Positions 33,680-34,316 of a DNA stretch of 64,000 bases are shown piece by piece. Both the position numbers and the translations under genes were made by a program. Position 1 is the stretch's first letter. Each line of letters opens with the position of its first letter. This DNA comes from Methanocaldococcus fervens AG86 (GTDB lineage: Archaea > AGJL01 > Methanococci > Methanococcales > Methanocaldococcaceae). Below the pieces are notes generated by a model. The model was not told the origin of the DNA. It made no database searches and saw only the letters and a program-made list of their open reading frames with translations. The stretch spans positions 1-64,000 of the forward strand of contig NC_013156.1 of NCBI RefSeq assembly GCF_000023985.1. The letters are read 5' to 3'.

Positions 33680-33724
33680 CCAAAAATTATTTAAGATATT
33701 AATCTCAATTAATTAACGACTATT

Positions 33725-33822
33725 GTCCTGACTCCTTAAGGAGTTGGGACGCGTCGATGACCCAGTGGAGTTTCTGCCCCTTTGACCCCAAAGGGGTAGG
33801 AAAATGATGAAGCTGGGGAGGC
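33725..33822 (+). ncRNA. GC-rich structured RNA with kink-turn upstream of rps6e
   Basis: A GC-rich island in AT-rich surroundings. Hairpin 1 is GTCCTGACTCC-TTAA-GGAGTTGGGAC (33725-33750, fully paired counting two G-T wobbles). The second element has a kink-turn: stem GTC (33753-33755), bulge GAT, GA, stem CCCAG (33761-33765), paired with CTGGG (33813-33817), GA, GGC (33820-33822). Above it are an 8/13-base internal loop and a 10-bp hairpin CTGCCCCTTT / AAAGGGGTAG (33774-33799). ATGATGA occurs at 33804-33810. Kink-turns are L7Ae sites. It could be a guide RNA, an Hgc-class ncRNA or an rps6e leader. Confidence 0.7.
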
Positions 33823-33923
33823 ATAGGGTGAAAAAATAAAAATTGATAAAACCTGTTTTATTGAACTTAAATTAATTTAAAAATTAAAAAAATAAAAGTA
33901 AAAATAATATAGGAGGTAGTAGT

Positions 33924-34316
33924 ATGCCAACAGCAAAATTCGTAGTTGCAGACCCAAAAACAGGAAGATGCTACCAAATTGAAGCAGACAACACACCATT
34001 AGTTGGTAAAAAAATTGGAGAAGTCTTTGATGGAAAAATTTTAGGTTTAGAAGGATACAAATTGCAGATAACAGGAGGAACAGACTCAAGCGGTTTCCCA
34101 ATGAGACCTGACATTCACGGAAGTAGAAAGGTTAGAGTTTTATTAAGTGCTCCACCAGGATTTAAACCAAAAAGAAAAGGAGAAAGAAGAAGAAAAACAG
34201 TTAGAGGAAACACAATAGCTCCTGATATTGTTCAAATTAATGTAAAAGTTGTTGAATACGGAGAGAAATCAATTCCTGAATTGTTAGGATTAGAAGGAGG
34301 AGAAGCTCAAGAGTAA
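33924..34316 (+). CDS. rps6e: 30S ribosomal protein eS6
   Basis: 130-residue archaeal eS6, beginning [19 protein letters not shown], with [31 protein letters not shown] and the basic [18 protein letters not shown]. It is a small-subunit protein shared with eukaryotes. GGAGGTAGTAGT precedes the ATG. The 100 bases upstream separate it from the structured RNA; TTAAATTAATTTAAAA near 33866-33881 could be its own TATA region. Confidence 0.97.

What the first reader, a model, noticed from the sequence alone, without database searches (positions are those of the whole stretch)
33725..33822. GC-rich structured RNA with a textbook kink-turn just upstream of rps6e
The island stands out from AT-rich flanks. 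It folds into a wobble-complete 11-bp hairpin and a second domain. That domain has stem GTC, bulge GAT, GA, stem CCCAG paired with CTGGG, GA, GGC, which is the kink-turn consensus, topped by an 8/13-base internal loop and a 10-bp hairpin. Kink-turns bind L7Ae, itself a ribosomal protein, and lie in guide RNAs, RNase P and some mRNA leaders. The position between pyrH-DUF2116 and rps6e makes either an L7Ae-controlled leader or an independent guide RNA plausible.
Basis: partly seen in the sequence, partly recalled or inferred. Interest (0 to 1): 0.78.

Follow-up and report, generated by a model that had tools for sequence, protein, structure and literature searches.

The report
Double kink-turn RNA leader of rps6e
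Just in front of a ribosomal-protein gene (rps6e), heat-loving methane-making archaea carry a conserved folded RNA with two back-to-back kink-turns, the shape gripped by the protein L7Ae, so this message probably carries a built-in sensor for that protein.

Summary
The island (33716-33831, +) folds far better than shuffles (z -5.6). It belongs to a single-copy RNA family directly upstream of rps6e in all 14 genomes of the window's genus and both genomes of a second genus. It is absent from the other Methanococcales searched and has no Rfam match. Covariation is overwhelming: 28 of 37 pairs have a change on both sides (shuffles 12.2 +/- 2.2). The anatomy is a weak closing stem, an 11-bp hairpin, and an arm with two head-to-head kink-turns sharing one 5-6 bp helix.

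The upstream neighbour differs among lineages while rps6e stays. A TATA-like box lies about 30-40 nt before the RNA in most genomes. In one genome only about 20 nt separate RNA and start codon. This favours a 5' leader of rps6e over a free guide RNA. L7Ae binding to both kink-turns is likely but inferred: the same genome's l7ae leader carries an almost identical kink-turn core including its Shine-Dalgarno. How occupancy changes S6e output is unknown, since the rps6e Shine-Dalgarno is usually not inside the fold. I rate it a new variant of the known L7Ae/kink-turn leaders.

The parts
33686..33693 (+). TATA-like box (ATTATTTA), 34 nt before the RNA's first paired base
   Evidence: An equivalent box starts 31-40 nt upstream of the RNA in most of the 16 loci, farther in G007/G013 and G008; consensus only, no TSS data
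33716..33831 (+). whole conserved structured RNA (covariance-model match)
   Evidence: R1 133.1 bits, R2 122.5 bits; one copy in the genome
33720..33723 (+). P1 closing stem, 5' arm (CUAU), pairs with 33823-33826
   Evidence: 78% of cells paired, 2 of 4 pairs with changes on both sides; weakest helix
33725..33750 (+). P2 hairpin, 11 bp, conserved U.G-G.U wobbles (GUCCUGAC/GUUGGGAC)
   Evidence: 98.8% cells paired, 5 pairs with changes on both sides
33753..33760 (+). kink-turn a, bulged strand: C stem GUC, bulge GAU, GA
   Evidence: C stem covaries (GUC/GGC, GGUU/AACC, GGUU/AGCC); GA kept in all
33761..33766 (+). helix shared by both kink-turns (CCCAGU), pairs with 33812-33817
   Evidence: all 6 pairs have changes on both sides, 95.6% paired
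33767..33772 (+). kink-turn b, non-bulged strand: G-GA, C stem GUU (pairs with 33803-33805)
   Evidence: C stem varies G.U/G-C, U-A/C-G, U-A/A-U
33774..33799 (+). apical hairpin, 10 bp
   Evidence: all 10 pairs have changes on both sides
33803..33811 (+). kink-turn b, bulged strand: AAU, bulge GAU, GA, A
   Evidence: GAUGA invariant in all 16
33818..33822 (+). kink-turn a, non-bulged strand: GA then C stem GGC
33823..33826 (+). P1 closing stem, 3' arm (AUAG)
33853..33859 (+). CTGTTTT tract between RNA and rps6e, recurring (CTRTTTT-like) in nearly all loci but not G012; role unknown
   Evidence: read by eye
33911..33916 (+). Shine-Dalgarno AGGAGG of rps6e
   Evidence: sequence; not paired with the RNA in any consistent way
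33924..34316 (+). rps6e (ribosomal protein S6e), 130 aa, the linked gene
   Evidence: ORF; homologue in all searched Methanococcales genomes of good quality

Best explanation
It is the structured 5' leader of the rps6e mRNA. Transcription starts at or just before P1. The RNA folds into a short closing stem, an 11-bp hairpin and an arm with two head-to-head kink-turns on one shared helix. L7Ae, the archaeal kink-turn protein, binds one or both. When L7Ae exceeds its binding sites in rRNA, C/D and H/ACA RNAs and RNase P, the leader is occupied and S6e output is lowered, so that this small-subunit protein follows RNP supply. Shown: structure, conservation, linkage to rps6e, kink-turn sequence rules. 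Inferred: transcript ends, L7Ae binding, and that binding changes expression; the sign and step of control (translation or mRNA stability) are guesses.
For: Covariation over 16 genomes: 94% of cells paired, 28 pairs changed on both sides against 12.2 in shuffles, score 0.49 against 0.226, and slid controls collapse. RNAalifold on an alignment not fitted to the structure recovers P2, both kink-turn C stems, the shared helix and the apical hairpin. Linkage: one match per genome, immediately upstream of rps6e, in 14 of 14 genus genomes and both genomes of g5. Upstream neighbours differ: DUF2116/pyrH, Rpp30 in G008, a large chelatase-like ORF in G002, a divergent CBS-domain gene in G012, glutamine-synthetase-like in G035 (gene names by my reading of the translations). 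G012 leaves about 20 nt between RNA and ATG, and its divergent neighbour means RNA and rps6e need a promoter upstream of the RNA. A TATA-like box lies 31-40 nt before the RNA in most genomes. The same genome has L7Ae-family genes, and its l7ae leader has a kink-turn with the same GAU-GA-A/G-GA core that includes the SD. L7Ae control through leader kink-turns is established elsewhere (PMC5539422, PMC6298567), and every kink-turn analysed folds on L7Ae addition (PMC6298567).
Against: No transcript or binding data. In most species the rps6e Shine-Dalgarno is about 80 nt or more from the fold and not consistently sequestered, unlike the l7ae leaders. A U-rich tract and AT-rich stretch in the spacer could be a terminator plus a second promoter. 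The four near-identical G004-type sequences have poor C-stem pairs in kink-turn b. In G034 the RNA is about 400 nt from rps6e. The fold is predicted stable without protein, whereas the known l7ae switches are unstructured without it.
Confidence: 0.6

Rival explanations
1. An independent stable non-coding RNA (an L7Ae RNP, perhaps a degenerate C/D-like RNA) with its own promoter and a U-tract terminator, next to rps6e only by retained gene order.
For: Own TATA-like box; 5' end of the fold near the expected TSS; a CTRTTTT-like tract after the RNA in nearly all genomes; C/D-like topology with GAUGA on both strands; GC-rich stable fold like other hyperthermophile ncRNAs.
Against: Linkage to rps6e survives several different upstream neighbours. 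In G012 there is no U-tract and no room for a second promoter before the ATG. No guide-like single-stranded stretch between the boxes. RNase P RNA in the same genome is followed by TTTTTT, a stronger tract than here.
Confidence: 0.2
2. An S6e autoregulatory leader: S6e itself, not or not only L7Ae, binds (for example at P2 and the junction) in place of its 16S site; the kink-turns are architectural or recruit L7Ae as a helper.
For: The downstream gene is the ribosomal protein; P2 has strongly conserved wobbles and sequence; r-protein autoregulation is common (established knowledge).
Against: No resemblance to 16S or 23S rRNA of this genome beyond 9-10-mers. Absent from the Methanococcaceae genera g2-g4, which also have S6e.
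Confidence: 0.2
3. A small-molecule or ion riboswitch that uses kink-turns only for architecture.
For: Three-way-junction-like fold with conserved P2 sequence; kink-turns occur in SAM-I and lysine riboswitches (stated in PMC3124441).
Against: No conserved single-stranded ligand-pocket-like core was seen; the linked gene is a ribosomal protein; no Rfam riboswitch match.
Confidence: 0.06
4. A coding or uORF feature: the AUG within UGAUGAA starts a leader peptide (MKLGRxR...).
For: A short ORF is present in most species, and it is in frame with rps6e in G008 and G012.
Against: M. infernus-like G002 reads MKPS*; the bases are explained by the kink-turn and helix covariation.
Confidence: 0.04

Closest known systems
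L7Ae-responsive kink-turn in archaeal l7ae 5' UTRs (Daume 2017 PMC5539422; Huang 2019 PMC6298567)
   Same: Standard kink-turn with GAU bulge and tandem GA pairs in the leader of a ribosomal-protein mRNA; this genome's own l7ae leader shares the core of kink-turn b
   Different: Gene is rps6e, not l7ae; two kink-turns on one helix plus an 11-bp hairpin; predicted stable without protein; SD not part of the kink-turn
Double kink-turn module of euryarchaeal RNase P RNA (Lai 2017, doi 10.1093/nar/gkx388; text not held, known here only by title)
   Same: Two kink-turns close together in one arm
   Different: RNase P RNA is a separate gene here. Its P12-like arm reads GAGAUGACGAUGAUAG...UUGAGGA, apparently both bulged strands on one side, whereas here they lie on opposite strands (my reading)
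Archaeal box C/D guide RNA
   Same: Topology: GAUGA on the 5' strand, GA, hairpin, UGAUGA on the 3' strand, GA; two L7Ae-type sites facing each other
   Different: The stretches between boxes are 6 nt and pair with each other, so there is no guide; D-like boxes are usually GGA, not CUGA
P. abyssi sRkB/sRkC (PMC3124441)
   Same: Untranslated RNA with two kink-turns, shown there to bind L7Ae; in sRkB one stem holds the start codon of the downstream gene
   Different: Kink-turns in separate stems P1 and P4; different gene, size and lineage

Membership tests
L7Ae/kink-turn mRNA leader (l7ae-type) | standard kink-turn: C stem, 3-nt bulge, tandem G.A/A.G, NC stem | tested here: met
   two of them
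L7Ae/kink-turn mRNA leader (l7ae-type) | lies in the 5' UTR of a protein-coding mRNA | tested here: inconclusive
   promoter-like box and RNA-to-ATG distances agree; no transcript data
L7Ae/kink-turn mRNA leader (l7ae-type) | SD inside or next to the kink-turn | tested here: not met
   SD 33911-33916 is about 80 nt downstream; only in G012 is it close
L7Ae/kink-turn mRNA leader (l7ae-type) | binds L7Ae and changes translation | not testable with these tools
   needs EMSA/reporter
RNase P RNA double kink-turn module | part of an RNase P RNA | tested here: not met
   RNase P RNA is elsewhere, C1:1009727-1009984; no RF00373 match in the window
Box C/D sRNA | C/D and C'/D' boxes separated by unpaired guides of about 10-12 nt | tested here: not met
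   intervals are 6-nt arms of a covarying helix; no Rfam match at the gathering score, only a chance-level TtnuCD34 at E 8.5
Box H/ACA RNA | ANA box 3' of the stem, kink-turn in the upper stem above the pocket | tested here: not met
   position after the stem reads AUA, GUA, AAA, GGA, UAA, CUU, CAA across species; no Rfam H/ACA match up to E 10
any Rfam 15 family | match at gathering score | tested here: not met
   none in the window; best sub-threshold E 1.2, RAGATH-34, on a shifted segment

The most novel reading that the evidence does not exclude
A two-site L7Ae sensor, two head-to-head kink-turns on one helix, that couples synthesis of the small-subunit protein S6e to the free pool of L7Ae: a trans-regulatory r-protein circuit in Archaea built on a C/D-like RNA architecture without guides.
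Probability: 0.4. Interest if true: 0.65.

Novelty: new variant of a known kind. Interest (0 to 1): 0.52.

Why it matters
Few structured r-protein leaders are described in Archaea. This family is well supported by covariation, apparently undescribed (not in Rfam 15, not found in the searched papers), and present in M. jannaschii-like genomes, whose L7Ae is well studied. If L7Ae controls rps6e, then L7Ae, shared by ribosome, guide RNPs and RNase P, would regulate another ribosomal protein in trans. The paired, oppositely facing kink-turns are also a compact natural module for structural work.

Tried and rejected
Rfam scan of the window and a permissive scan of the region: nothing credible. rRNA mimicry by shared words with the genome's rRNA operon: only 9-10-mers. 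Extra copies in the own genome: none; the second DNA hit is an ABC-transporter gene, and other GATGA pattern hits, looked at by eye, lack the complementary layout or look like coding sequence. Wider relatives: none among about 260 genomes outside the order; a weak hit in G208 (E 0.004) lies in a coding frame and was rejected. No match in rps6e loci of other archaea. The antisense hit in G011 (18 bits) is the inverted P2 hairpin. SD sequestration by folding whole leaders: no consistent pattern. The uORF reading was rejected because of G002. Lai 2017 was not held, and Klein et al. 2002 did not turn up in the paper searches, so I could not check whether GC screens of M. jannaschii already flagged this locus.

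Full report
Setting. The window lies in a 1,485,061-bp chromosome.

Observation. The island folds at -53.5 kcal/mol, z -5.56, none of 200 shuffles as good; the opposite strand gives z -2.8. It is the most GC-rich 70-nt stretch of the window. The named elements are all there.

Conservation. A DNA search found the RNA in most Methanocaldococcus-like genomes. Placing rps6e in 34 of 36 genomes of the order and reading upstream showed it in front of rps6e in all 14 genomes of the genus and in both g5 genomes, including divergent ones missed by DNA. Covariance model R1, built from 8 sequences, found the 8 that were not in the seed at 33-125 bits; the divergent ones scored 33-65 bits. R2, built from all 16, gives exactly one match in each of those 16 genomes and none in the other 20 of the order. 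Among 297 genomes reaching across the domain only one further weak hit appeared, inside a coding frame.

Structure. On the model-fitted alignment 94% of cells are paired and 28 of 37 pairs show changes on both sides; no shuffle reaches any measure and slid partners collapse to 35-59% paired. Because that alignment leans towards the structure, I also folded the plain MAFFT alignment: RNAalifold independently returns P2, the stem under kink-turn a (with a fourth covarying pair), the shared helix, the C stem of kink-turn b and the apical hairpin, with 16 of 26 pairs changed on both sides in at least one sequence. P1 is the weakest element: 78% paired, displaced in G002, G012 and g5.

Two kink-turns. 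Kink-turn a: GUC-GAU-GA-CCCAG / CUGGG-GA-GGC. Kink-turn b reads on the other strand: AAU-GAU-GA-A-GCUGGG / CCCAGU-G-GA-GUU. They share the CCCAGU/GCUGGG helix and face each other. In divergent species both C stems change together with their partners (G008 GGUU/AACC and GCUUAG/CUAAGU; G012 GGUU/AGCC and GCCC/GGGU; g5 GCA/UGU) while the GA of both bulged strands is kept. G002 appears to have A at 2n in both and G012 in b; a natural kink-turn with A at 2n that binds L7Ae is known (PMC3985660, abstract). A descriptor for this layout occurs once in the window and 0.05 times per shuffled window.

Leader or gene. The RNA stays with rps6e while the upstream neighbour changes. A TATA-like box starts 31-40 nt before the RNA in most species, placing a transcript start near P1. 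In G012 the RNA ends about 20 nt before the start codon, with a Shine-Dalgarno in between and no U-tract, so a separate terminated RNA plus a second promoter hardly fits. In most Methanocaldococcus genomes the spacer is longer and has a CTRTTTT tract, so an additional short transcript there is not excluded.

Mechanism. L7Ae is the obvious ligand: it is present, binds kink-turns generally, and controls its own mRNA through a leader kink-turn in several archaea (PMC5539422, PMC6298567). In this genome the l7ae leader contains CCUCC-G-GA-UU / AAAA-GAU-GA-A-GGAGG, whose last five bases are the Shine-Dalgarno, matching the core of kink-turn b. The rps6e Shine-Dalgarno is not in the fold and no consistent sequestration is predicted, so the step controlled is open.

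Relation to known kinds. It works like an L7Ae/kink-turn leader but is not an l7ae-type leader (other gene, SD not in the kink-turn). It is not RNase P RNA, not a C/D guide (no guide), not H/ACA (no ANA box), and has no Rfam family.

Noticed in passing
L072 and L074, upstream of rps6e (genomes G023, G029): A different rps6e leader: a hairpin GGTGATAACATC...TACTGTTATCACC whose 5' arm copies the Shine-Dalgarno/start region AAGGTGATAAGATG, so its 3' arm could pair with either; looks like an SD-mimic switch.
   Followed up: no
L071, L079, L080, L081, L082 upstream of rps6e: Other Methanococcaceae rps6e leaders share a promoter (AAAACTATAAAAAT) followed by an AGAYGGG..GGAA motif, unrelated to the double kink-turn RNA.
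   Followed up: no
L108, minus strand, about 100 nt before the L7Ae-family ORF (G000 C1 near 1039440): The l7ae leader of this genome holds a kink-turn containing the Shine-Dalgarno, and an upstream CCAC-GAUGA...GA-GUGG element that may be a second one.
   Followed up: partly
window 33804-33840: The AUG in kink-turn b opens a short basic ORF (MMKLGRHRVKK*), similar in most species but MKPS* in G002 and fused in frame to rps6e in G008 and G012.
   Followed up: partly
window 33853-33859 and equivalents: A CTRTTTT-like tract between RNA and rps6e in nearly all genomes, absent in G012; terminator, pause or processing site not decided.
   Followed up: partly
L067 (G034), between RNA and rps6e: In G034 the RNA is about 400 nt from rps6e, with an intervening stretch holding a CACTGCAACCTTCGGTTGCAG hairpin, possibly an inserted element.
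   Followed up: no
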